IMG/VR virus record: IMGVR_UViG_3300034375_000425 | Coordinates: 1 to 23,390 of that record | Length of the DNA stretch: 23,390 bases | Reading direction: 5' to 3' (one strand) | From: a virus | Shown here: positions 3,137 through 19,964 of the stretch, piece after piece | Layout of the letters: the number at the start of each line of letters is the position of its first letter | Numbering within the stretch: the first letter of the stretch is position 1 | Notes under the pieces: model-generated | Seen by the model: only the letters and a program-made list of their open reading frames with translations | Database searches by the model: none | Told to the model about the DNA's origin: nothing | Program-made: the position numbers and the translations under genes

Positions 3137-3433
3137 TTATGTTGTCGTCACAGTGACCGACCCAACAGATCCAAGGGCCGAGGACCCACGTACGTGTGGC
3201 GTGTTCAACTCAGACACCTTCAAGTACCCGCCGTGATTAAACACGGTTCCTGGTTCTACGTTATAGTCGTCAGTTTGTAGGTTCGTAAACACCGTAAACG
3301 TATTACGCCCCTCACCAGGGTTCCGCTCGTTCTGCATGTAAACAGAAATTGCTCGAATAACCTCGGCAAAATACCCTTGCTGATACTCCTGCGGAGGGAC
3401 CGGAAGAAATGGAAGCGTTAGATTTCGTGACAT
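3137..3433 (-). CDS. Conserved small tail-region protein with VTVTTT tail
   Basis: This 98-residue protein of unknown function begins MSRNLTLPFLPVPPQEY. The start overlaps the stop of the upstream hub gene (TAATG) and is preceded by a strong GGGAGG. The middle, about residues 40-75, looks beta-rich (NTFTVFTNLQTDDYNVEPG). The last residues, LGSVGSVTVTTT, resemble both the 22-residue repeats of the 13034-14029 protein and the end of the 15432-15734 protein. Being immediately downstream of the P22 gp10-like gene suggests a tail accessory role. I recognise the family as recurrent in marine phages but know no function. Confidence 0.8.
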   Translation of the reverse strand: MSRNLTLPFLPVPPQEYQQGYFAEVIRAISVYMQNERNPGEGRNTFTVFTNLQTDDYNVEPGTVFNHGGYLKVSELNTPHVRGSSALGSVGSVTVTTT

Positions 3434-5337
3434 TAACGCCTCCCGTCGGGCCGTATATCAACCCTAGGTGACCCAAGTCTCCATGTTACTCCAGTGTCTG
3501 CGTTGGAAACCTTGAAACTAAACTGTCGCCCACGCAGCCTGAAATCGAGCTGCTGCCTGTCGTTGTCGTAGAACACTCCCGTGGAAGAACGAAGATACGA
3601 TCCGCCAGAGATGTTGCGAACATTCATTGTGATATCAACAGAGGGGTTTTCCGCAGTCGAGTTTTCGAAAGCCACATCTGGGAATACCCGACGAATGAAA
3701 CTGAACTGTTCACCGTCACCGATGTCCAAGGGACTAGACTGGATGTACGAGTCGATTGCCGATGCGGGCGATGTGCTGCCATCATCAAAACCAACCTCAT
3801 GCTCATACAAGTAGCCGTCCAAGCCAGCTGCGATCGGGTTTTCAAATGCCCCGCGATCGACCCAAGAAGAACGAGCAAGTGTGCCGTAATACCAGACATT
3901 TTCTTGGTAGTTGTAAACAACATACCTATCCACAAGAGCAGAACTAGACGAGGGGTAGAACCACCACACCTCAGAATGAGCCGAGTTCAAACCCGCAAAG
4001 ACCTTGTCGCCTTGCCCGAAGTTGAAATCGTCAAACACGTAGCTACGCACGCTGCATGGTATGCGCTGCACCGAACCGTTGTACATGTAGAACTCAGACT
4101 GACCCATCCAGAACACCATGTCGTCTACGGCGACACCGGCCATCGGACCTTGGATGCTGGTGTTTTCCGAGATCAGGTTGATCCCGAAGGTAAACGGCGG
4201 GCCTAAATACTGCATCGCATGAAGCGACGTGTCGGTGAAAACCAGAACCTGTTGTCGGGTTTCAAATACCGTAATGATTTCAGATCCCGCACTAATACGA
4301 AGATCGCCCGCCGTGTTGGTAACAGTGGGCGTCCAGTCTGCTGCGTTTTCTTGGTCCGAGAAACGAATGAGCAGAGGATCTTGCGTGCCGATGTTATCAA
4401 CAGGATCACAGCCAAAAGCAATCACATGGCGGTCCCGGTTAGAAACAAGAACAGCACGAGCAAGAGTTGGGGCGCCTAATGCACCGGACAGGTCCGTCAG
4501 AGGAACTGCGCGCTGAAACGTTGTGTATGATGCGCTACGATCCCAGTAGTAAATCCCACCATTCCGTGGATTGAAGATCAAATCCTCGCCAAAGTTATCT
4601 TGAGACCATGTGCGAAGGTTTCCTGTAGCTGTGTTGATGTTTGTGGCAGAACCCCATGTCCCGCGGCTCCAATAACCGGCACCCCACCCGTTCCCGTACA
4701 GAGCGGTGTCTAGACCAGTGTTGATCTGGTACGATCCGACAGTATTTGAACCACCGTTGCCACTATCCGAAGCATTGGCAGCAACCGGAGTGTATACCAG
4801 CTGACCATCAACTGTGATGCTGGTAATAGAGGTGTTCGCTGTTCGGGCCTGGATTGTGTACGTGTCGGTGTCTACGACCGAAAGGATCTGATACTCTTGG
4901 TTCAACACATCTGCGGTGATGTCCCCGCCCAAGCTTACAGCCCCGCTAAATGTAACGAAGTCGTTGGCGGTTGCGCCGTGGCCCGTGTCGCTTACCGTAA
5001 TAATCGAAGACCCATCAACGGCAGCAAACGTAACATCGCCAGCTGCCGTTGTTTCTCGAATTGGGGTGATGTCATTATAGCCACCACCCTCTTCCGCATA
5101 GAACTTCAAGTCTGTTCCAACACCGATCAAACGAGTGCCAAGAAGATCCCGCCAGGGGTGCAACGAACGAGCATACCCCAAGAAAGATAGGATACCCTTC
5201 CGAGTCCAGCCCCCAATCTTCTCAGGAAACCCTTTGGTAAATCGTACCTTATCACAATCGTGCCAACCGCCCTCGTTGGTGTAGTTGGTTACTTCACGAT
5301 TGATCCCTGGACGGAACTGGAACTTTTGAAGCGGCAT
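3433..5337 (-). CDS. Tail hub / DNA-stabilisation protein, P22 gp10-like
   Basis: This 634-residue protein opens with FRPGINREVTNYTNEGGW, then DKVRFTKGFPEKIGGW, a signature I associate with the P22 gp10 packaged-DNA stabilisation family that forms the tail hub or nozzle below the portal. Residues about 94-180 look like an inserted beta domain (DTGHGATANDFVTFSG, then VVDTDTYTIQA). Residues 215-230 carry a Trp-rich WSRGTWGS motif also found in the repeat protein at 13034-14029. The rest shows repeated aromatic beta-strand patterns compatible with a propeller-like fold, e.g. MVFWMGQSEFYMYNG and YVVYNYQENVWYYG. The start has only a weak ribosome binding site, seven bases past the upstream stop. 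The hub role is inferred from family and position. Confidence 0.8.
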   Translation of the reverse strand: MPLQKFQFRPGINREVTNYTNEGGWHDCDKVRFTKGFPEKIGGWTRKGILSFLGYARSLHPWRDLLGTRLIGVGTDLKFYAEEGGGYNDITPIRETTAAGDVTFAAVDGSSIITVSDTGHGATANDFVTFSGAVSLGGDITADVLNQEYQILSVVDTDTYTIQARTANTSITSITVDGQLVYTPVAANASDSGNGGSNTVGSYQINTGLDTALYGNGWGAGYWSRGTWGSATNINTATGNLRTWSQDNFGEDLIFNPRNGGIYYWDRSASYTTFQRAVPLTDLSGALGAPTLARAVLVSNRDRHVIAFGCDPVDNIGTQDPLLIRFSDQENAADWTPTVTNTAGDLRISAGSEIITVFETRQQVLVFTDTSLHAMQYLGPPFTFGINLISENTSIQGPMAGVAVDDMVFWMGQSEFYMYNGSVQRIPCSVRSYVFDDFNFGQGDKVFAGLNSAHSEVWWFYPSSSSALVDRYVVYNYQENVWYYGTLARSSWVDRGAFENPIAAGLDGYLYEHEVGFDDGSTSPASAIDSYIQSSPLDIGDGEQFSFIRRVFPDVAFENSTAENPSVDITMNVRNISGGSYLRSSTGVFYDNDRQQLDFRLRGRQFSFKVSNADTGVTWRLGSPRVDIRPDGRR

Positions 5338-5343
5338 GTTTCA

Positions 5344-5679
5344 TCACGCCGCGTTCAAGGCATCGAGACGATCCCAGACCCAGGTCGCAGCTGCTACCGG
5401 ATCGAATGGGACTGTTTCCATTGGGTTGTTCGGGTCGGTCTGTGTCCATTCCGCGCCGACGTTTGCAAGGTAGGTTTGTAACCACTCCTTGCTGTCAACA
5501 ATCTCAAAGTCGCCGCTGGCCTCGTCTTTTGCGATCCCAATCATAATGTTGTCACGAGGGGAAGGCGTGTTGGGGTCGGTCACAACATACACACCGCCTA
5601 CGCCATCTTCGCCCAAGTAAAGAAAGTCAGGGATAGTTCCCTCTGCAGTCAGGCGATATTTAATGCATTGATACGCCAT
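5344..5679 (-). CDS. Conserved small tail-region protein of unknown function
   Basis: The start at 5679 (MAYQCIKYRL) is chosen over an upstream in-frame ATG because AAGGAGA sits five bases before it. It lies 20 bases inside the end of the glycosyltransferase gene, so the two are probably translationally coupled. The 111-residue product has a mixed alpha/beta pattern and ends in WVWDRLDALNAA. No catalytic or metal-binding motif, signal peptide or membrane segment is visible. Its position between the glycosyltransferase and the tail hub gene suggests a role in tail assembly or as a minor virion protein, but nothing in the sequence specifies which. Confidence 0.8.
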   Translation of the reverse strand: MAYQCIKYRLTAEGTIPDFLYLGEDGVGGVYVVTDPNTPSPRDNIMIGIAKDEASGDFEIVDSKEWLQTYLANVGAEWTQTDPNNPMETVPFDPVAAATWVWDRLDALNAA

Positions 5680-6397
5680 TTGCGTCTCCTTCAGAGTATT
5701 GGCCGCTGAAACAATACGACCCAAAATGTCCTAGCTCACACCACGGAGCGGCCCAGACGCTGCCCCCAAGCTCACGATACTTATGACAGAAAAAGTAGTC
5801 TTCGGAAAGCAACTCATGCTCGACGTTGCCAACTTGGAAGAAGTCATAAATTCTTTCGCCAGGGCGGATGGTGGAACCCCCATTGGTATAGTAGCCAACT
5901 TCTGGTTCCAGTGTATCAAAAACATCGCGCCGGATCAGCATAAATCCTGTGCCGCCATGCTTGATTTGGAAAGGTTCGTCCGAAGCCATCATAGTGTGCC
6001 CCTCAAGTTCATTGAGAGCAAAGACACCCGACAATCGGCTAAGGTCTTTATGCATGCGAAGTGCACCCCTGCGGATGCGTTCCCAATTAAACCCCTTCAT
6101 CGGTACAGGTCCGATGATGATACCCTTGTCAGCCTTGATCATTTTAGCAACGTCGTTGGGGCGGAACCGAATGTCAGCATCACAGAACAGAAGATGGGAG
6201 GCGTCCGTCTGCAAGAAATGATGAGCTATCGTATTCCGCCCCCTCTGGATCAACGACTCGTTGCCCAGAAAGATAGTGGTCAGTTTGTGACCGTGTTCCG
6301 TAAGTGCTTCTTTAAGGCCAAGTAGCGACTGACAATACTCAGTCGTCATCATGCCACCATAGCAGGGTGTGCCGACCACAAGGTGGAAACCGTCCAT
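5660..6397 (-). CDS. GT-A type glycosyltransferase
   Basis: The start at 6397 (MDGFHLVVGTPCYGG) has AAGGAGG seven bases upstream and overlaps the preceding stop as TAATG; a longer in-frame reading would run deep into the coiled-coil gene. The 245-residue protein has the layout of a GT-A glycosyltransferase: an N-terminal strand and loop (VVGTPCYGG), LIQRGRNTIAHHFL, then LLFCDADIRF with the D73-A74-D75 metal and nucleotide-sugar motif. HGGTGFMLIRRDVFD (147-161) and LSEDYFFCHKYRELGG (197-212) follow, the latter with an ED pair typical of the acceptor or base position, and then HFGSYCFSG. It could glycosylate virion proteins, host surface sugars or DNA. The substrate cannot be read from the sequence. 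Confidence 0.85.
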   Translation of the reverse strand: MDGFHLVVGTPCYGGMMTTEYCQSLLGLKEALTEHGHKLTTIFLGNESLIQRGRNTIAHHFLQTDASHLLFCDADIRFRPNDVAKMIKADKGIIIGPVPMKGFNWERIRRGALRMHKDLSRLSGVFALNELEGHTMMASDEPFQIKHGGTGFMLIRRDVFDTLEPEVGYYTNGGSTIRPGERIYDFFQVGNVEHELLSEDYFFCHKYRELGGSVWAAPWCELGHFGSYCFSGQYSEGDANGVSMH

Positions 6398-7245
6398 TAC
6401 TCGTCCTCCTTGCTGTGATCTTCCAGAGCCACATTCGTCAGAGATGTCTTGTCGAGGATTTGGAAGCCACGGCTGTTCGCAAATTCGGCGGGGCAGTGCG
6501 CCCACTTGTCCGCGCACTTCTCCAGCCACGCCACAGTGTCGGAGTGCTGCGGGGCCTTGCCCTGCGCCATCATTTCGTTTTCCCACGAGAGGTAAGCATA
6601 CACCTCCATCTGCGCTTCAGCAGCGGGCAGGCCAAGATCAAAAATGTAGATCATATTGCCTTCGTCGATACTGCCGCCGCGAGAGCGGGCCGCAGTCAAC
6701 GCCTGCTTCATGCAGGTCATAATGTGATACTTGACCTCTTCAATCTCGTAGTCTTCCTCAGTCAACTCTTCTTTGCCGAGCTTCTTCATCAGGTTGTCGT
6801 ATTGGTTTGTGAAGAAGTTCAACTTGCGGATCGCACCTTGGACATGGTTCTGCGTGCTGATGAGATGCGCCTTAGCCTCGACGATTTTGATTTCCAGAAG
6901 CTCGCGCTCCAGATCGTCATCCTCTTCGTCAAGCTTGCGCTCCAGCTTCTTCAGCTTGTTCTCTTTCTTCCGCATACCGATGTAGGCTTCTTGCAGCGCG
7001 GACCTGGTTCGGTCAATCTCGGCCAGCGTGTGCTTGATTGAGCGCACGGGCGTGATAGCCGTCACATCAAGCGTGACGCCCATGAACTGCGAGTGCGACT
7101 TGTGGAAGTTGGAGGTCGCCTGCGCCACAGCCGGAGCCTTCTCATCGATGTTTTGCAGCATCGACTTATACTCAGGCTTGGCGCTTGGCAGATGAATAGA
7201 AAGTTCAGCAACGACGAGCGCGTTGCTTTCGTTTTGATCAGTCAT
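6397..7245 (-). CDS. Long coiled-coil phage protein of unknown function
   Basis: This 282-residue protein has a strongly charged helical stretch at about residues 75-180 (RKKENKLKKLERKLDEEDD and neighbours) with heptad-like spacing, so a coiled coil is likely. The C-terminal third is more globular, with two or three cysteines and tryptophans (YLSWENEMM, WLEKCADKWAHC). The start has GGGAG six bases upstream, and that ribosome binding site lies within an inverted repeat (7250-7279). It ends in TAATG overlap with the glycosyltransferase. I do not recognise a function. A tail assembly or scaffold-like role would fit its place between fibre genes and the tail hub, but a cytoplasmic role is equally possible. 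Confidence 0.8.
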   Translation of the reverse strand: MTDQNESNALVVAELSIHLPSAKPEYKSMLQNIDEKAPAVAQATSNFHKSHSQFMGVTLDVTAITPVRSIKHTLAEIDRTRSALQEAYIGMRKKENKLKKLERKLDEEDDDLERELLEIKIVEAKAHLISTQNHVQGAIRKLNFFTNQYDNLMKKLGKEELTEEDYEIEEVKYHIMTCMKQALTAARSRGGSIDEGNMIYIFDLGLPAAEAQMEVYAYLSWENEMMAQGKAPQHSDTVAWLEKCADKWAHCPAEFANSRGFQILDKTSLTNVALEDHSKEDE

Positions 7246-7286: not shown

Positions 7287-7808
7287 TTATGGTTTTGACG
7301 GCCAGTCTTCTTCTGAAAGATGTGGGAAATTGGCATGATTGGTGATGTCACGCAAAGCTTGACGGTAGAGTTCTACCATGGCGGGGATGTTCGTCCCTTT
7401 TTCCGTATGCATGATCACGATCCAGTCAGTCTCTGCAAGCAGCTGATTGCGTTGGTTGCGAACACTTGCAGCCGCGCTAGCATCAACACGGGCGCGATAA
7501 GCTTCTGTTTGAGCAGCAACAGTTTGCACTACGTTGTTTTCATCTGTGTATTCTGAAAACACTGGCCCAACAGAATAAACTGTAAACCATTTTCCATCAG
7601 CATCCTGCGTAACGCCAGATTTGTAGCTGAACTCATAGGGAGGCGTTGTCGTCGCCTGCGGGCCCTCAAACACGGGATCAGCACCGAGTTCATTAAGGCG
7701 CTCTTCAGTGATGGGATTTCCCAACACCGGGCGCGTCTTTTTGTGCATCTTCCGAAAAGAGATCTCAGTGACCACTTCCCCGGTTTCTCGAATGCGAATC
7801 AAGCCCAT
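7287..7808 (-). CDS. Tail assembly chaperone-like protein (APC type)
   Basis: This 173-residue protein has a charged N-terminal part (residues 1-95, beginning MGLIRIRETGEVV). Its C-terminal domain, about residues 112-171, shows RNQLLAETDWIVI, then YRQALRDITNHANFP and a closing WP. That R-x-LLxxTDW ... YRqaLRdi ... FP ... WP pattern is characteristic of the phage tail assembly chaperone family (APC) and of fibre-assembly proteins. It follows the 683-residue fibre gene directly, with a GAGGAG ribosome binding site, which matches the usual fibre-then-chaperone order. A role in folding or attaching the fibre is therefore likely. Whether it stays in the mature virion cannot be told. Confidence 0.8.
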   Translation of the reverse strand: MGLIRIRETGEVVTEISFRKMHKKTRPVLGNPITEERLNELGADPVFEGPQATTTPPYEFSYKSGVTQDADGKWFTVYSVGPVFSEYTDENNVVQTVAAQTEAYRARVDASAAASVRNQRNQLLAETDWIVIMHTEKGTNIPAMVELYRQALRDITNHANFPHLSEEDWPSKP

Positions 7809-7819
7809 GTCATTCTCCT

Positions 7820-9871
7820 CTATGCAATCGCCAAGAAAATATACTCGGCACTGCTTACATTTACATTTGTAGCAGCATCTTGGTTTACGATAAAGCCTGT
7901 GCTTTCCGCGTCCACGCTATCATCGCCAGTGACCTCAGCCGCATCCGTATTCAGCGACAGATGCGGATCGTTACCAGCAACAATACCACGGGCGCTATCC
8001 CAAACATACCAGTCGCCCGTGCTGTCGGTGCGCTTGATGAGGATGAACCTTGCGCCAGTTGTAAAGCCGCAGTCAATCGTTTGGCTGGTGCCGTTGCCTG
8101 TGTAGCTGCCGACCTTGCTCACGCCGGGGAGGGTGGCGAAGAGGTAGGCGATGTATTTTGTTGGATGACCAACTTGACCATTAAAATATGTCCCAACCGT
8201 AAAATCTGTTTCCGTTGGGCTAGTATTGTTAAAATAGTCTACACTAGTAAGAGGCCCGCCAATGCTGTTTAGCCTCAATATAGCTGTGTTTCCAACATCC
8301 TTATGATAAACACCCCACGCAGCTGTAGTGTCTCTTACTTTTACTATAAACATCTCAGGTGTGACGGTAAGGTTGTGAGAGATGGTTTGGCTTGTTGTGT
8401 TGTCGGAACCATACGCCACCACATCGAAGAAGCCGGGCGCACGGCGGAAGGCATGGGATATAAAAGTATTACCGTTACTGTTTAGCCCGCCAGAACCACC
8501 TAGTATAAAGCCCGTGTTGCTATCAAGGCCGTCAACGTAATAGTTGTCAGACATAGTTGACTCAGCGGCGGTTGATTGAGTAACTAATCTTTGCTTTGCC
8601 CCCCGCATACGGTCAAACACGTTTCCGTCATTGCTTGAAAGCGCCCTGCTTGTTGCAAAAAGGTAGTCCACAGGAAAACCCGTGGTTATCACTCTGTTGT
8701 CAACAGCATCACCCGTGTAAGCAACAGGCGCAAACACCTCCGTCCCACTCGTAGGCGCACGCATCGGGCCACGGCGGATGGCGATGTAGATGTAGTTGTA
8801 GCCATTTCCATTTAGAGCAAATCCACTTGTCTTTAAAGTAAATCCAGTTGGATTTGGCTGCATTGCAAATAGAGAACCAGATGCTTCAGCCTGAGAATTG
8901 TTTGGGTTTAGACGTGCTGAGCTGGAATCAGTCATACCACGCATAGTATCTATCAGCGTCCAATCTTGCCCAAGGTCATACCCTTTAACCAGCACCCACT
9001 GAGGCTCCCATCCAAGATCAATCTCAGGGCCAGTAGTAGAACCATTCCCCGTATAACTCCCACACGCAATCAACCCATCAGAGCCATCACCAGACGGGCC
9101 GAGGGGATCGTGGGCGAAGAGGTAGATAACATAAGTCCTGCCACTAACATTTAAGCCAGTGCCAATAGTAAAATGAGTGTCTGTCGGCTCTGTGTCACCC
9201 CAGATATTACTGTTTGTTTGGGCTGCACCAGTGCTGTTTATGTTTACATATTTTGTTGCCCCAAGAGATCGGTGATACGAAAACCAGTTGTCAGCAATGG
9301 CTGTTGTTTTAGCCGTGTAAAATCCCGGAACCACACCTAAGTTGTGCGGCACTGATTTATTACCAGTCCCATCCCCCGTAAACGTCACCACATCGAAGAA
9401 CCGAGGTGCCTTGCGGAAGGTCCATGAGACAATGTTTTGCCCCGTAGGAGATAAACCTGAGGGCAAAGTGTATCCGTCTGAATTAAAGACAACTGGACTA
9501 CCACCAACATTAGAAATCTGTGCGGCAGTTGTGTTAGAGCGTATGCTGTATTGACCAGTTCTTTCTGTATCATGTAAAAAATGGTCATAACCAGCAGCTC
9601 TAACTTTATCCCATGTCATTCCACCCTCACCAGCGAGGTCAATCCCGTTGGTGATCGTCAGTGCCGAGCCAGTGCCAGTGTAGAGGTATGTGCTGAACAC
9701 GTCTTCGATCAGCGGCTTTTGGTTCCCGGCAGTAGGCCACAGTCCGGCCTTCACGTAGGTAAACGCTTCCTGCAAGGACCACGTACCGCTGGCCGAGGAG
9801 TCCTCAAACGAGCCAGTGGGCTCGACCGCAGTCGAGGAGATGATGTTCGCGGGGAAGCGTTTGTCGGACAT
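7820..9871 (-). CDS. Large tail fibre / receptor-binding protein, DUF7483-like
   Basis: This 683-residue protein carries near its N-terminus the anchor-like motif SGTWSLQEAFTYVKAGLW (residues 28-45), comparable with WSLSEVYQAVGQNNW in the next gene upstream. Two long homologous blocks follow, residues about 149-366 and 471-683. They share FRKAPRFFDVV / FRRAPGFFDVV, PTDTHFTIG / PTETDFTVG, VIYLFA / IAYLFA and GSYTGNGS / GSYTGNGT, and end in YIYIAI / YIFLAI. A shorter related segment lies between them. I recall the family from marine phage fibres as DUF7483 (from memory). GGAGGG lies eight bases before the start. The protein probably binds the host surface. Base composition is visibly more AT-rich in parts of the repeats, suggesting recombination. 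Confidence 0.85.
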   Translation of the reverse strand: MSDKRFPANIISSTAVEPTGSFEDSSASGTWSLQEAFTYVKAGLWPTAGNQKPLIEDVFSTYLYTGTGSALTITNGIDLAGEGGMTWDKVRAAGYDHFLHDTERTGQYSIRSNTTAAQISNVGGSPVVFNSDGYTLPSGLSPTGQNIVSWTFRKAPRFFDVVTFTGDGTGNKSVPHNLGVVPGFYTAKTTAIADNWFSYHRSLGATKYVNINSTGAAQTNSNIWGDTEPTDTHFTIGTGLNVSGRTYVIYLFAHDPLGPSGDGSDGLIACGSYTGNGSTTGPEIDLGWEPQWVLVKGYDLGQDWTLIDTMRGMTDSSSARLNPNNSQAEASGSLFAMQPNPTGFTLKTSGFALNGNGYNYIYIAIRRGPMRAPTSGTEVFAPVAYTGDAVDNRVITTGFPVDYLFATSRALSSNDGNVFDRMRGAKQRLVTQSTAAESTMSDNYYVDGLDSNTGFILGGSGGLNSNGNTFISHAFRRAPGFFDVVAYGSDNTTSQTISHNLTVTPEMFIVKVRDTTAAWGVYHKDVGNTAILRLNSIGGPLTSVDYFNNTSPTETDFTVGTYFNGQVGHPTKYIAYLFATLPGVSKVGSYTGNGTSQTIDCGFTTGARFILIKRTDSTGDWYVWDSARGIVAGNDPHLSLNTDAAEVTGDDSVDAESTGFIVNQDAATNVNVSSAEYIFLAIA
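7823..9427 (-). repeat. Internal duplication in the large fibre gene
   Basis: Two coding blocks of about 640-655 bases, 8774-9427 and 7823-8461, encode homologous protein segments in the same order. They are separated by about 310 bases encoding a partially related segment. The similarity is clear in protein and weak in DNA, so the duplication is old. Confidence 0.7.
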
Positions 9872-9873
9872 GG

Positions 9874-10818
9874 TTAGAGCCCTCCGTGACCGTTAGAGCA
9901 AGAGCCCATAAAGTTTTTAGGCGAAGACAAATCACCAAAGTCTAATGCGTTTCCGGCTGATGCTATGGTAACAAAGTCAAGCACATTGTATGTTACACCC
10001 GCGTCATAGCCCCCACCAAACACAGCATAGCTGTCTCCAGAAACCGCGCTAAGATATTGTCTTGCAACTGTAAGGTCACCGAAGTCAACAGCGTTACCTG
10101 TTGAAGCAATCGTGACATATTCAATCGTGTCTGTGTATGATGTCGCCGTGCTGTTGCCGCCACCAAACAACGCTCGCGTCTGACTAGACGCTGCTGAAAG
10201 CGCATAAAATGTTTGGGACAAGTCACCAAAATCCGTGGCGTTTCCTGCCGAAGCTGTTGTCACATAATCAATGATATCCGTTTGCGGCTGCCCGCCAGCA
10301 TTAAGTGTTCTTGTCGGGCTAGAGCATCCGGCGTGAGAGTATCTGGAAACAGTCATGTCCCCAAAATCCGTGGCGTTGCCAGTTGTCGCAATAGTAACAT
10401 ACTGGATCGTGTCAACAGTTTGACCACCGCTAAACAACGCCCTAGTGTCCGATCCTCCAGACGCCATAAAGACCGCGCCACTAGAAAACAGAAGGTCACC
10501 AAAATCTGAAGCATTACCAGTGGTGTTGATGGTGACATATTGAATAGTATTGACCGCGCTACCGGAAACCTCGCCGCCAGCAAAAAGACCTCGCGTCTTT
10601 GACGCGGCGCCTACCAGTCTATCTCGTGCGGTAATCAACGAGCCAAAAGTTGCGGAGTTACCCGCAGTGGCGATAGTAATGTAGTCAATGGTTGCTATAA
10701 CAGTGCCAGTAGTTCCACCGGCAAACAAACCCCGCGCTGGCGGCGGGTTAGTCCAGTTGTTTTGACCAACAGCCTGATACACCTCGGACAGGGACCACAC
10801 ACCTTGATAATTGGGCAT
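9874..10818 (-). CDS. Propeller-like repeat protein with fibre anchor (six repeats)
   Basis: The start at 10818 overlaps the upstream stop (TAATG) and has GGAGG nine bases before it; a seven-residue upstream extension is open but less likely. The 314-residue product begins with an anchor-like segment containing VWSLSEVYQAVGQNNW (residues 7-22). It then carries six repeats of about 42-50 residues, each with a core like IxYVTIxxTGNAxDFGDL followed by R-ALFxGG. The chain starts inside a repeat (RGLFAGG) and ends before completing one (CSNGHGGL), as expected when first and last strands close a beta-propeller ring. This looks like a virion adhesin or galactose-oxidase/Kelch-like propeller. Ligand unknown. 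Confidence 0.85.
   Translation of the reverse strand: MPNYQGVWSLSEVYQAVGQNNWTNPPPARGLFAGGTTGTVIATIDYITIATAGNSATFGSLITARDRLVGAASKTRGLFAGGEVSGSAVNTIQYVTINTTGNASDFGDLLFSSGAVFMASGGSDTRALFSGGQTVDTIQYVTIATTGNATDFGDMTVSRYSHAGCSSPTRTLNAGGQPQTDIIDYVTTASAGNATDFGDLSQTFYALSAASSQTRALFGGGNSTATSYTDTIEYVTIASTGNAVDFGDLTVARQYLSAVSGDSYAVFGGGYDAGVTYNVLDFVTIASAGNALDFGDLSSPKNFMGSCSNGHGGL
9877..10689 (-). repeat. Six propeller-type coding repeats (second gene)
   Basis: Six units of roughly 125-150 bases each encode the core YVTIASTGNAxDFGDL or a variant. They are paralogous to the six repeats in the gene immediately upstream. Confidence 0.8.
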
Positions 10819-11990
10819 TATGCAAGTCCTCCGTGGCAATCAGAAGCACCAGCTCTTTGTGAGCCTACAGCTAGTAAATCACCAAAATCTGTAGAATTTC
10901 CTGTGCTTGCCATAGTGACGTAACTCATCACGTTGGTAAAACTAGAGCCGTTAAACCCATGAGCGCAAACTGCCCTTGTTTTATTCGAACACGCACCGTT
11001 TTCAAAAGCCCCTGTATAAAGATCGCCAAAGTCAGTTGCATTTCCTGTGGTTGCTGTTGTCACATAATCAATCGTCGTGTATGGACTAACACTGCCACCC
11101 ATCCAAACAATTCTAGTAGTGCTACAGCCAGCTTCCATTTGATTTCTAGTTTCAGATAGGTTGCCAAAGCTAGTTGCGTTTCCAGTGGATGCTATAGTGA
11201 CATACTCAATACCAGCGGCATCACCACCAAAAACCGCTCTCGTTCCGTTTGATCCCGCTCCACCATTTGAGCGACTTGTTGTGGCAAAATCACCGAAGTC
11301 AACAGCGTTACCTGTTGAAGCAATAGTGACATAAGATATTTGATTGTTGTTTTGCCCGCCCATAAAAAGGCCTCTAGTATCATTGGCGGTTCCTGCCATT
11401 CCTATATTCCTAGAATCACCACTTGCTATAAGTAAATCACCAAAGTCTTGTGCGTTACCAGTAGTGGCAAAGGTTATGTATTCAATGAAATTGCTTCCGA
11501 AAGTAGTTCCTGTTCCACCAAAAGCTAAAGCTCTGATAGAGTTGCCAAACGCACCCAGTTGCTTTTGGGCTATGGACAAGTCGCCCCAGTCAGTCGCATT
11601 TCCTGTTGATGAAATGGAGATATATTGTATGACACTACTGTTTGGATCTCCTGCGCCAAAGAAAACACCTGTGTCTGGAATAGATGGCGTAACACTCCCG
11701 CTCGCATCACTCGGCGCAGACCACCCAAACGCATTAAGTGCCCAGACACGGAAAGTGTAGGCGGTGTCGTTGGTCAAGCCAGTGACCGTAATTGGCGAAG
11801 ACGATCCCGTAGCGCCGATACCGTCATTGGACGTGGCAACGTAGCCCGTGACAGCAGAGCCACCCACATCAGACGGCGCGGTGAAGCTTACGGTAGCTTC
11901 CTCGTCACCTGCCGATGCGCTTACACCAGTCGGTTCATCAGGAGCATTCAGGCCATCTTGGTTGATGAACCCGCCTTTACGATTCGCCAT
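10818..11990 (-). CDS. Fibronectin III plus six-repeat propeller-like protein
   Basis: This 390-residue protein has AAGGAGA upstream of its start. Residues about 16-102 match a fibronectin type III domain: PTGVSASAGDEEATVSFTAP, then ITVTGLTNDTAYTFRVWALN and a final Gly/Ser-rich SAPSDASGSV segment. From residue 121 there are six repeats with cores such as IEYVTIASTGNATSFGNL and MSYVTMASTGNSTDFGDL. The chain opens with half a repeat (GVFFGAGD) and closes with CHGGLA, consistent with a closed ring. Its repeats are clearly paralogous to those of the next gene, which lacks the fibronectin domain. Fibronectin domains are common on phage virions, where they bind surface sugars. Adhesin function is inferred. 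Confidence 0.85.
   Translation of the reverse strand: MANRKGGFINQDGLNAPDEPTGVSASAGDEEATVSFTAPSDVGGSAVTGYVATSNDGIGATGSSSPITVTGLTNDTAYTFRVWALNAFGWSAPSDASGSVTPSIPDTGVFFGAGDPNSSVIQYISISSTGNATDWGDLSIAQKQLGAFGNSIRALAFGGTGTTFGSNFIEYITFATTGNAQDFGDLLIASGDSRNIGMAGTANDTRGLFMGGQNNNQISYVTIASTGNAVDFGDFATTSRSNGGAGSNGTRAVFGGDAAGIEYVTIASTGNATSFGNLSETRNQMEAGCSTTRIVWMGGSVSPYTTIDYVTTATTGNATDFGDLYTGAFENGACSNKTRAVCAHGFNGSSFTNVMSYVTMASTGNSTDFGDLLAVGSQRAGASDCHGGLA
10821..11630 (-). repeat. Six propeller-type coding repeats (first gene)
   Basis: Six units of roughly 130-150 bases encode the core YVTIASTGNAxDFGDL with variations. The DNA words differ between units, so protein-level conservation exceeds nucleotide conservation. 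Confidence 0.8.
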
Positions 11991-12389: not shown

Positions 12390-13013
12390 TTAGCCAAACA
12401 CGATTGCCATGGCAATTGCCTTGCCAGTTGAGATACCAGCGTCCGCAAACGAAAGTGTCCCGGACCCATTGGTGGTCAGTGCCTGACCGCTAGACCCATC
12501 CGATCCCGGAAGGGTAAATGCTGTGACGAATGTCTGCAAGTTGGAATCATAAGCAAGAACAGTGGTTCCAATGTCGCTTGTGGTAAGAACACCAGTGAGG
12601 TCCGTCGCTAAACTAACTACGTTTGCACCAGCGCCGCCGCCGTCACAGTAAACAATGTCTTTCGCACCGTCAGCAACAGTTACAGTGGTGCCTGACCCCT
12701 GGGAGATAATAACGCTCTCGCCCGAGTTGTTTACAATGTAGTAGACTTTGTCCTGGTCGTTTGGGCTAACGGTGACCGTGTTCGTCCCGGAAGGAGAACC
12801 ACCAAAAACCAGAACTTTATAATGACCATCCGACAACGTACCGTCTGTCGTCGTCAGAGTATGGGTTGTACCAGAAAGTGTGATCGCACCTACACCGTTG
12901 GTGAGGCGGTCAATGATTTCAAGGTTTGTGTTCGTGGTATCGCCCCACGTACCGGACTGCTCACCGTTGGCGATAAGCTCGATGCCCGTGTTGACTGTGT
13001 ATGTACTAGCCAT
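12390..13013 (-). CDS. Fibre-like tail protein (SGTWGDTTNTNL family)
   Basis: This 207-residue protein begins MASTYTVNTGIELIANGEQ, followed by SGTWGDTTNTNLEIIDRL. That opening is, to my knowledge, very common in fibre or neck-fibre proteins of marine phages. The middle is beta-rich with Thr/Ser/Gly. Near the end it has FTLPGSDGSSGQALTTNGSG, a linker seen before fibre tips, and a C-terminal GKAIAMAIVFG. The start has AGAGG seven bases upstream. It is shorter than most fibres and has no visible enzymatic domain, so it may act as an adaptor or a base onto which other adhesins assemble. Exact position in the virion is inferred. Confidence 0.85.
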   Translation of the reverse strand: MASTYTVNTGIELIANGEQSGTWGDTTNTNLEIIDRLTNGVGAITLSGTTHTLTTTDGTLSDGHYKVLVFGGSPSGTNTVTVSPNDQDKVYYIVNNSGESVIISQGSGTTVTVADGAKDIVYCDGGGAGANVVSLATDLTGVLTTSDIGTTVLAYDSNLQTFVTAFTLPGSDGSSGQALTTNGSGTLSFADAGISTGKAIAMAIVFG

Positions 13014-13033
13014 GAATTACCTCTAGACCCCCG

Positions 13034-14029
13034 TCACGGTTGGATTTCAGTATAGCTTGTTGTGGTGCTTGGCACAATGGCTGTCCAACTCGTGCTTGGA
13101 TTTGGAACAATGCGCCCCCAAACAAGAACACCCCACGGAGCAATTAGCCCGTCTGCAGAGACGCCCGTGACGTTCACGTCGATCCCTGTACCTGTGGTGA
13201 CAGTAACAGAACCAGTACTACTTGTCAGCTCAAAACCAGTGACAGGTATTCTCTGATTTACCTGAGTGGTAACGGAGCCAACTTGCCCGGTTCCTTCCAG
13301 CGGAAGCGTTACAGGCTGACTCCATGCACCAGAGCCCCAAGTGCTGCGGCTCCAGCCCTCAAAGAAAACCAATGCGTCCTGGCGGATTGAGTTAGATATA
13401 CCTGTGGCTGATACGCCTGTCGGAGAGACAACAGCAATACCAGTAGCGGTTATAGTGCCAACTCCGCCAGTGGCTTCAAGGCCCGTCGCCGCTGGAGACG
13501 TAGAACCGGTGGCAACCGCAGTCCCAACAGCAGAGGTGCCGCCAACACCAGTAGTGTTTACGTTAACGCCAGAACCTTCTCCGATCGTGACGTCACCGAC
13601 GGCCGACGTAGACTCAACACCTGTAACAACAGCTGCAACCAAGGCCCTGAATGTAACATCACCAACAGCCGTCGTGGAGGCTAGTCCGGTAACAGATACT
13701 TCTGCGCTTGCCGTTGCGGTAACAGAACCAACACTGCCTGTGGCCTCCACACCTGTGGTCGGAACATCAGCAGTACCTGACGTCGTAACAGTTCCGACAA
13801 CCCCAGAGGCTGCACTGCCAGTAATCGTAGGCGAGACGTTGATTTGAACCGTTGTCGAATCAACAGCACCAGTGGCGCCGAGACCAGTGACTGAGGCTAT
13901 TGCATCAGCGGAAACAGAAACAGTTCCCACGCTCCCAGTGGCAGACAGCCCGGTCACCACTACAGGTGCGGGCTGACTCCACGGGCCCTCAGACCATGTG
14001 CCTCGGCTCCAGCCGGTGATGCTCGCCAT
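13034..14029 (-). CDS. 22-residue beta-repeat virion protein with Trp-rich motifs
   Basis: This 331-residue protein starts with GWSRGTWSEGPWSQP (residues 6-20). Nine repeats follow, built on xTGhxATGxVGxVTh, with the invariant TG at residues 26, 48, 70, 92, 114, 136, 160, 182 and 204, almost exactly 22 apart. The Trp-rich motif then recurs (GWSRSTWGSGAWSQP, 225-239), with two looser repeats after it and an aromatic C-terminus (WTAIVPSTTTSYTEIQP). Composition is dominated by Val, Thr, Ser, Gly and Ala, so an extended all-beta solenoid or fibre is likely. The Trp motif is also found in the tail hub protein (3433-5337). It is probably a virion fibre or collar component. No established function. 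Confidence 0.85.
   Translation of the reverse strand: MASITGWSRGTWSEGPWSQPAPVVVTGLSATGSVGTVSVSADAIASVTGLGATGAVDSTTVQINVSPTITGSAASGVVGTVTTSGTADVPTTGVEATGSVGSVTATASAEVSVTGLASTTAVGDVTFRALVAAVVTGVESTSAVGDVTIGEGSGVNVNTTGVGGTSAVGTAVATGSTSPAATGLEATGGVGTITATGIAVVSPTGVSATGISNSIRQDALVFFEGWSRSTWGSGAWSQPVTLPLEGTGQVGSVTTQVNQRIPVTGFELTSSTGSVTVTTGTGIDVNVTGVSADGLIAPWGVLVWGRIVPNPSTSWTAIVPSTTTSYTEIQP
13364..13969 (-). repeat. Nine 66-bp coding repeats (22 residues each)
   Basis: Codon-level repeats encode hTGhxATGxVGxVT units with a 66-base period (one unit is 72 bases). DNA identity between units is modest, while the TG and VG positions are nearly constant. Confidence 0.8.
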
Positions 14030-19049: not shown

Positions 19050-19964
19050 TTATGCTGCGCCAGGCGAACCGAACACCGCACGGGGGTCCGAGAAGCCGAA
19101 GCTGTAACGCTCACGAGCCTTGAAGCGCATGTTGCCGGTGTCGAAGTCGGCTTCCATGCCGGTCGACAGCGGGGTGCGCTCAAAGTGGATGAAGCCACGG
19201 GGCGCGTCAGTCTTCACAAACCAAGCATCGGGGTCGGTCAGGAAGTCGTTGACGGTGTAGCCCTCAGGCAGCATGCCCATCGAACGGATCGCGTTGACGT
19301 CGTTGTCTGCAGTGCCGACACGCAGGTTCGAAACCATCAGACGCTCAGCAACGAACTGCAGCTGGCGAGGGATGATGAGTTTCATGCCGCGCAGGGCAAC
19401 TTTCAGACCACGCTCGTCGACGAAGCCCGCGATGTTGATCAGAGCATCTTCCAACGAGGTTTCGTTCAGGTCAGCAGCAACCGCCGGCTCGTTTGCAAAA
19501 GTGCCACCGCTGGTCAGCGGGTGGTCAGTTGCACACAGAGCTTTGCCGTCGCCACCTGCCGAAGCGCCTGCAGTGAAGGCGTTGTTCAGCACGGCAGCAG
19601 CTTTAACCTGCTTGGTGTGAGCCATCGAACGAGCCAGCGCACGGGTGTAACGCGAACCCAAGCGGTCATAGAGGTTGTCCTCAATGGCCTCTTCAGTCAG
19701 CGAGAACGCCAGCGCAATCGTTTCGTGATTGTAGCGGGCGGTGTACGCTTCGTTGGCATCGTCAAAGTTGATCGCAGAACCTTCGGATTTGGTCGGTGCC
19801 GCGCCGAAGCCCGACAGCATAACCTCTTCCTCAAATGCACGATCCGACGACTCGGTGGTGTAGATTTCGGAGTGCTGGTTTTCGTACCGACCATACTCCA
19901 TGCCGAAGAGGGCGTTAAGACCCGGCTCCAGCTCTTTCGCGAGTTGTGCGCGCGAGATAGCCAT
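19050..19964 (-). CDS. Major capsid protein, HK97-fold, Mu gpT-like
   Basis: The 304-residue protein has a strong AAGGAGGG ribosome binding site. Key segments are an N-terminal helix (SRAQLAKELEPGLNALFGM), a spine-helix-like region (about 90-130, LTEEAIEDNLYDRLGSRYTR), ALCATDHPLTSGG (142-154) and LKVALRGMKLIIPRQLQF (187-204). FIHFERTPLSTGM and a C-terminal YSFGFSDPRAVFGS follow. I associate the xLxxxDHP loop followed by a mid-protein LIIPRQLQ strand with Mu gpT-like capsid proteins of the HK97 fold. No propeptide or protease gene is visible nearby; the separate scaffolding gene upstream agrees with protease-free assembly. Terminator follows directly. Capsid identity is well supported by context. 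Confidence 0.9.
   Translation of the reverse strand: MAISRAQLAKELEPGLNALFGMEYGRYENQHSEIYTTESSDRAFEEEVMLSGFGAAPTKSEGSAINFDDANEAYTARYNHETIALAFSLTEEAIEDNLYDRLGSRYTRALARSMAHTKQVKAAAVLNNAFTAGASAGGDGKALCATDHPLTSGGTFANEPAVAADLNETSLEDALINIAGFVDERGLKVALRGMKLIIPRQLQFVAERLMVSNLRVGTADNDVNAIRSMGMLPEGYTVNDFLTDPDAWFVKTDAPRGFIHFERTPLSTGMEADFDTGNMRFKARERYSFGFSDPRAVFGSPGAA

What the first reader, a model, noticed from the sequence alone, without database searches (positions are those of the whole stretch)
5660..6397. Glycosyltransferase embedded among tail genes next to Ser/Thr-rich adhesins
A GT-A enzyme with an intact DAD motif lies between a coiled-coil gene and the tail hub, in the same operon as extremely Ser/Thr-rich virion proteins. 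Besides modifying host surface sugars, it could glycosylate the phage's own fibres, giving a self-decoration system. Presence of the enzyme is well supported; the target is inference.
Basis: inference. Interest (0 to 1): 0.52.

Follow-up and report, generated by a model that had tools for sequence, protein, structure and literature searches.

The report
Phage sugar-transferase in a tail-fibre cassette
A water-dwelling phage carries an intact sugar-attaching enzyme inside its tail-fibre gene block; its relatives keep the enzyme tied to one particular tail cassette, which hints that the phage may decorate its own tail, but the sugar's target is not known.

Summary
The enzyme is real: minus strand 5660-6397, 245 aa, phrog_1574. 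AlphaFold gives a confident GT-A fold (pLDDT 94.9) closest to STIV A197, then LH3, Mnn9, mimivirus R699 and COLGALT1. DxD, Lys101, Glu199-Asp200 and His224 are kept in 173 of 173 homologues aligned. The window is an HTVC023P-type podovirus by its capsid.

In the window's clade the GT follows the coiled-coil gene in 86 of 88 rows (83 of 85 contigs). Yet 65 of 69 nearest coiled-coil cassettes lack the GT, and their repeat/fibre proteins are as Ser/Thr-rich as GT+ ones (0.226 vs 0.229). So Ser/Thr-richness is no sign of glycosylation, but the GT is an optional passenger that is seldom found outside this tail cassette.

Sister clades sit in recombination/replication operons, in phages Cr30 and DLP6 near a Tet_JBP oxygenase, so DNA is a plausible target elsewhere in the family. 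Tail decoration is my favoured but unproven reading (0.45). New variant of a known kind.

The parts
5660..6397 (-). GT-A glycosyltransferase, 245 aa, phrog_1574; DxD = D73/D75, K101, E199-D200, H224
6397..7245 (-). coiled-coil gene (CC), 282 aa, phrog_1409 (unknown function); constant upstream partner of this GT clade
5344..5679 (-). small 111-aa ORF (sm) that follows the GT here and follows CC directly in GT-less relatives
3433..5337 (-). stabilization-protein homologue, 634 aa (phrog_3287; 43% to DSL-LC04 'stabilization protein')
7287..7808 (-). tail-fibre assembly chaperone (PF16778)
7820..9871 (-). fibre-like protein, 683 aa, DUF7483, S+T 0.21
9874..10818 (-). repeat protein with motif ..YVTIASTGNATDFGDL.., S+T 0.23
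10818..11990 (-). fn3 plus the same repeats, 390 aa, S+T 0.23
12390..14029 (-). two further Ser/Thr-rich genes (207 aa, S+T 0.26; 331 aa, S+T 0.30) with counterparts in DSL-LC04
19050..19964 (-). major capsid protein, 72% to Pelagibacter phage HTVC023P and 71% to Phage DSL-LC04

Best explanation
A soluble, metal-dependent GT-A glycosyltransferase made late with the tail proteins. Most likely it puts a sugar from a host nucleotide-sugar pool on a protein of the adjacent tail-fibre cassette (the repeat/fibre proteins, or the coiled-coil protein as carrier or acceptor) during assembly, changing how the fibre binds or is recognised. It is an optional module that one lineage of the family brought into the cassette. 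Shown: fold, conserved catalytic residues, purifying selection, strand, cassette linkage, optional presence. Inferred: activity, sugar, acceptor, timing, effect.
For: GT next to CC in 86 of 88 rows (83 of 85 distinct contigs), commonly with a 3-nt gap between tblastn match ends (55 of 86), with repeat proteins found in the rows with enough upstream sequence. Downstream backbones differ: of the 58 loci with at least 3 kb downstream, 43 show a stabilization-protein homologue and 15 do not. Structural genes and GT share one strand; polymerase, helicase and primase lie beyond on the other strand. No hydrophobic segment (best 19-residue Kyte-Doolittle mean 0.58). Best folds: STIV A197 Z 19.0, LH3 17.4, Mnn9 16.7, R699 16.0, COLGALT1 15.9, GalNAc-Ts in Foldseek. 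A review passage says A197 is essential and possibly glycosylates the STIV coat protein (PMC10551542). A second, distant branch of the same family sits in the tail region of HTVC023P and HTVC027P, in the same podovirus lineage.
Against: 65 of 69 nearest CC cassettes do without the GT. Ser/Thr content, loop composition and N-x-S/T frequency give no GT-linked signal. Fold lists also hold enzymes with non-protein acceptors (Mnn9, TarP, GlfT2, cellulose and hyaluronan synthases, SpsA). Sister clades are in recombination/replication operons. One tail-clade member, L314, lies without CC among what look like early genes (annotation by eye). Linkage alone can be hitchhiking of a swapped module.
Confidence: 0.45

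Rival explanations
1. Host-envelope modifier: the GT alters the surface glycan that the linked fibre binds, so that infected cells or debris no longer trap progeny. Linkage to the fibre cassette then reflects receptor specificity.
For: The enzyme travels with the receptor-binding module; lower-ranked folds include wall-teichoic-acid TarP/TarS and GtrB; GTs of pelagimyophages are described as lipopolysaccharide-modifying (PMC9599517 passage). That P22 keeps its gtr genes near the tailspike is recalled, from no call.
Against: No membrane segment; no GtrA-type flippase or lipid-carrier partner among the ten proteins of this region scanned with Pfam; placed with late structural genes, when changing the cell surface gains little for a lytic phage (inference).
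Confidence: 0.25
2. DNA glycosyltransferase: the family glycosylates an oxidised or hydroxymethylated base; the window's copy is a relocated member.
For: Sister clades lie beside RecE-like exonuclease, RecT-like, SSB-like and RusA genes. T4-like Cr30, DLP6, OC and phiM12 carry it close to the sliding clamp genes. In DLP6 a Tet_JBP gene is about 1.2 kb upstream, and in Cr30 about 5 kb downstream in the same direction.
Against: No Tet_JBP and no thymidylate synthase/hydroxymethylase family match in the 20 tail-clade records of about 30 kb or more (fragments, so not conclusive). Tet_JBP was near the GT in only 2 of 172 loci. In the window the gene is away from replication genes, which lie on the other strand.
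Confidence: 0.12
3. Passenger: an accessory gene carried by module swapping, acting on an unrelated target (lipid, small molecule, other host protein) with no tie to the tail.
For: Optional in the cassette; present in very different contexts across the family, bacterial chromosomes included; L314 has it without the cassette.
Against: Almost never found apart from CC within the clade, and presence on the CC tree needs only two changes against about 39 in shuffles.
Confidence: 0.18

Closest known systems
STIV A197 (PDB 2c0n), archaeal-virus GT-A enzyme
   Same: Small soluble viral GT-A domain; best sequence-profile (E 0.0017) and best fold match (Z 19.0, 166 residues, 2.5 A); proposed to decorate its own coat protein
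   Different: 13-18% identity; unrelated virus type; A197's acceptor is itself undetermined
phrog_1574 family (unknown function)
   Same: E 1.4e-36 over residues 4-231
   Different: Most relatives examined sit in recombination/replication operons or bacterial genomes; the tail clade has V98 in 17 of 17 where the rest has Tyr in 150 of 156
Virion glycosylation in mycobacteriophages Che8 and Rita
   Same: Phage-encoded GTs that decorate virion proteins (as reported in PMC11256854, passages)
   Different: Capsid rather than tail; no sequence comparison made here; the primary paper (Freeman 2023) is not held
HTVC023P gp78 / HTVC027P gp81
   Same: Same podovirus lineage, same GT family, in the tail region beside another GT and 2OG-Fe(II) oxygenases
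   Different: 27-29% identity; on another branch of the tree, hence probably a separate acquisition; no CC or TGNATDFGDL-repeat match in the stretches compared
Collagen glycosyltransferases LH3 and COLGALT1; mimivirus R699
   Same: GT-A domains with Z 15.9-17.4
   Different: 8-14% identity; multi-domain; LH3 and COLGALT1 work on hydroxylysine of collagen (recalled), for which nothing was seen here

Membership tests
GT-A glycosyltransferase fold | Rossmann-like GT-A core | tested here: met
   AlphaFold2 pLDDT 94.9, pTM 0.92; 80 PDB chains at E<=0.001
GT-A glycosyltransferase fold | DxD metal/nucleotide motif with downstream acidic pair and C-terminal His | tested here: met
   D73, D75, E199, D200, H224 in 173 of 173; the scan patterns themselves asked for parts of the DxD region, so only K101, E199, D200 and H224 are unselected
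phrog_1574 | profile match over full length | tested here: met
   E 1.4e-36, residues 4-231
Pfam Anp1 / Glycos_transf_2 | score above the curated cut-off | tested here: not met
   18.5 vs 28.8 and 17.6 vs 23.3 bits; 56 of 96 relatives match Anp1 at E<=0.01
virion-glycosylating phage enzyme | sugar covalently on a virion protein | not testable with these tools
   needs mass spectrometry
virion-glycosylating phage enzyme | genomic tie to the protein it would modify | tested here: met
   86 of 88 rows next to CC; the tie is one-way: 65 of 69 nearest CC cassettes lack the GT
gtr-type LPS seroconversion cassette | membrane-bound GT with flippase/lipid-carrier partner genes | tested here: not met
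   no hydrophobic segment; no such partner among the ten proteins scanned. The definition is recalled
phage DNA glycosyltransferase | enzyme that makes hydroxymethylated/oxidised bases in the same genome | tested here: inconclusive
   none in the window's twin contig or the other tail-clade records, but these are fragments; Tet_JBP present in Cr30 and DLP6

The most novel reading that the evidence does not exclude
A glycosyltransferase lineage whose relatives work with DNA replication (with a Tet_JBP partner in some T4-like phages) was re-purposed as an optional self-decoration module of a widespread, uncultivated tail-fibre cassette. The coiled-coil protein serves as its acceptor or docking partner and the fibre repeats get a phage-controlled sugar coat, which can be switched on or off by gain or loss of one gene.
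Probability: 0.2. Interest if true: 0.72.

Novelty: new variant of a known kind. Interest (0 to 1): 0.42.

Why it matters
Sugar coats on phage tails are hardly documented. Here is a natural experiment: related tail cassettes with and without one glycosyltransferase, found in the same samples, which makes the role of phage tail glycosylation directly testable. The same family's closeness to Tet_JBP oxygenases in two T4-like phages also gives a candidate DNA-modifying enzyme to assay.

Tried and rejected
Ser/Thr-richness as evidence of glycosylation: rejected. Repeat/fibre proteins in GT+ cassettes (20 rows, 17 distinct contigs) and GT- cassettes (65) have S+T 0.229 and 0.226; loop S+T 0.286 vs 0.292, p 0.69. 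N-x-S/T sequon in the repeat (GNAT): rejected as GT-linked, 0.69 in GT+ and 0.78 in GT- (related sequences, so the p value is only a guide).

Another enzyme in the same slot of GT- cassettes: none seen; among 76 loci the usual next gene is sm, overlapping CC by 11 nt, in a few a short unrelated ORF.

Structure of the repeat protein: AlphaFold pLDDT 44.4, pTM 0.42 with only 9 sequences; not interpreted and not searched. That the repeats are kelch-like is my reading of the sequence, not a result. PDB search with the single sequence found nothing useful; NCBIfam nothing. Coiled-coil gene: no match in isolate phage records; the repeat protein only weakly in Synechococcus phage S-SKS1. Promoter/terminator scan around the cassette: promoter-like sites not above shuffles (7 vs 10.0), terminator-like 16 vs 10.5 (sd 3.2), two of them on the minus strand within the GT (5940, 6292) and one within sm (5642); a break in the transcript is not excluded. 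Structure-library absences were not used as evidence.

The CC and GT trees are quick trees. In one search the 149 CC sequences of 240 aa or more were cut to 116 distinct ones; near-identical, short and very long GT rows were left out (96 rows kept). Gene calls are from a simple script. Papers: passages only of PMC9599517, PMC10551542, PMC11256854, PMC11404850; listings only for the rest. Those eight searches listed no paper on this GT family in a tail cassette; two search slots were left unused.

Full report
WHAT IS THERE. The window is a 23,390-base virus record. Its main genes run on the minus strand. The GT ORF is 5660-6397 minus; its ATG overlaps the stop of the coiled-coil gene (CC, 6397-7245) as TAATG, and its 3' end overlaps by 20 nt a 111-aa ORF (sm, 5344-5679). 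Then comes 3433-5337, homologous to the stabilization protein of Phage DSL-LC04 (43%) and to genes of HTVC023P/HTVC027P (33%). Upstream are a tail-fibre assembly chaperone (PF16778) and Ser/Thr-rich proteins, S+T 0.21-0.30. The capsid protein is 72% identical to Pelagibacter phage HTVC023P and 71% to DSL-LC04, so this is an HTVC023P-type podovirus; the host is unknown. A twin contig (G001, no mismatch over 3583 compared bases) shows polymerase, helicase and primase genes beyond the window on the opposite strand.

THE ENZYME. phrog_1574, E 1.4e-36; Pfam only sub-threshold. In an alignment of 173 loci, D73, D75, K101, E199, D200 and H224 are invariant (the DxD region was partly a search pattern). 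The model is excellent (pLDDT 94.9). Best matches: STIV A197 Z 19.0, LH3 17.4, Mnn9 16.7, R699 16.0, COLGALT1 15.9, then cellulose synthase 14.7 and others. The fold supports a GT-A enzyme and leans to protein-glycan enzymes but does not fix the acceptor. dN/dS against the 83% relative is about 0.05 with saturated dS.

THE CO-OCCURRENCE TEST. With the clade's own profile 230 relatives were found in IMG/VR. Of the 88 rows examined (80 of the 230, plus 8 from earlier calls; three contigs are in twice), 86 have CC directly upstream, one has the order CC-sm-GT (L021), one lacks CC (L314, which looks like a T4-type early region by eye). In the opposite direction CC has 481 relatives; of the 80 kept, 69 have at least 900 nt downstream, and only 4 of these have the GT: two contigs with GT and CC identical to the window's, and two at 83% GT identity. 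65 lack it. There CC usually runs into sm with an 11-nt overlap, an empty site; in the window the GT's last codons take over that overlap. GT+ and GT- cassettes occur in the same two samples: 3300025853 holds L174 and L205, 3300034374 holds L175 and L194. On the CC tree the state changes at least twice; the window's CC is nested among GT- ones.

SER/THR CONTENT. No difference between GT+ and GT- cassettes in overall S+T or loop S+T, and fewer N-x-S/T in GT+.

THE FAMILY ELSEWHERE. On the GT tree (96 rows) the tail clade is one group (100% SH-aLRT) with a long stem, inside a phage clade whose other members mostly lie in recombination/replication operons with RecE-like, RecT-like, SSB-like, RusA or primase genes. 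T4-like Cr30, DLP6, OC and phiM12 carry it close to the sliding clamp genes. Cr30 and DLP6 have a Tet_JBP domain in the gene annotated 'SNF2 DNA repair protein', about 1 to 5 kb from the GT; phage TET enzymes are linked to 5mC to 5hmC oxidation (PMC11404850 passage; the cited Burke 2021 is not held). Tet_JBP was found near the GT in 2 of 172 loci, so it is the exception. HTVC023P and HTVC027P have a far branch of the family in their tail region beside another GT and 2OG-Fe(II) oxygenases, probably a separate acquisition.

HOW IT MOST LIKELY WORKS. Shown: an intact, selected, soluble GT-A enzyme, optional in but tied to a tail-fibre cassette. Inferred: it is made late and modifies a cassette protein. 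The clade-specific Tyr98-to-Val change next to the conserved P99 and K101 (17 of 17 vs 150 of 156) fits a change of substrate, but that is a guess. Rivals are host-envelope modification (0.25), an unrelated target (0.18) and DNA (0.12).

NOVELTY. Phage virion glycosylation is known and viral GT-A enzymes are known. New here, as far as eight paper searches show, is the one-way tie of one GT clade to an uncultivated tail cassette and the empty sites beside it.

Noticed in passing
L009 11997-12753 and L010 3398-4744 (Cr30, DLP6): Genes annotated 'SNF2 DNA repair protein' carry a Tet_JBP oxygenase domain (PF12851) near the phrog_1574 GT: a candidate TET plus GT DNA hypermodification pair.
   Followed up: partly
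window 6397-7245; 481 IMG/VR relatives: A highly conserved coiled-coil tail gene with hundreds of relatives in environmental contigs and no match in 50,697 isolate phage records.
   Followed up: partly
L253 23-4973, L255 15605-16225: 2OG-Fe(II) oxygenases in the tail-fibre region of related podoviruses HTVC023P and DSL-LC04; possible protein-modifying partners of tail GTs.
   Followed up: no
window 9874-11990: Repeats of about 47 residues with TIASTGNATDFGDL, looking kelch-like; the structure could not be predicted with 9 sequences.
   Followed up: partly
L052, L074, L076, L080, L082, L083, L085, L086, L090: Two phrog_1574 GT genes side by side or one gene apart in several phage contigs.
   Followed up: no
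L035, L037, L038: GT genes of about 460 codons, that is with roughly 200 extra residues of unknown nature.
   Followed up: no
L119-L157 (Rhizobium and relatives): Chromosomal GT homologues lie near what look like thiamine-synthesis genes (by eye).
   Followed up: no
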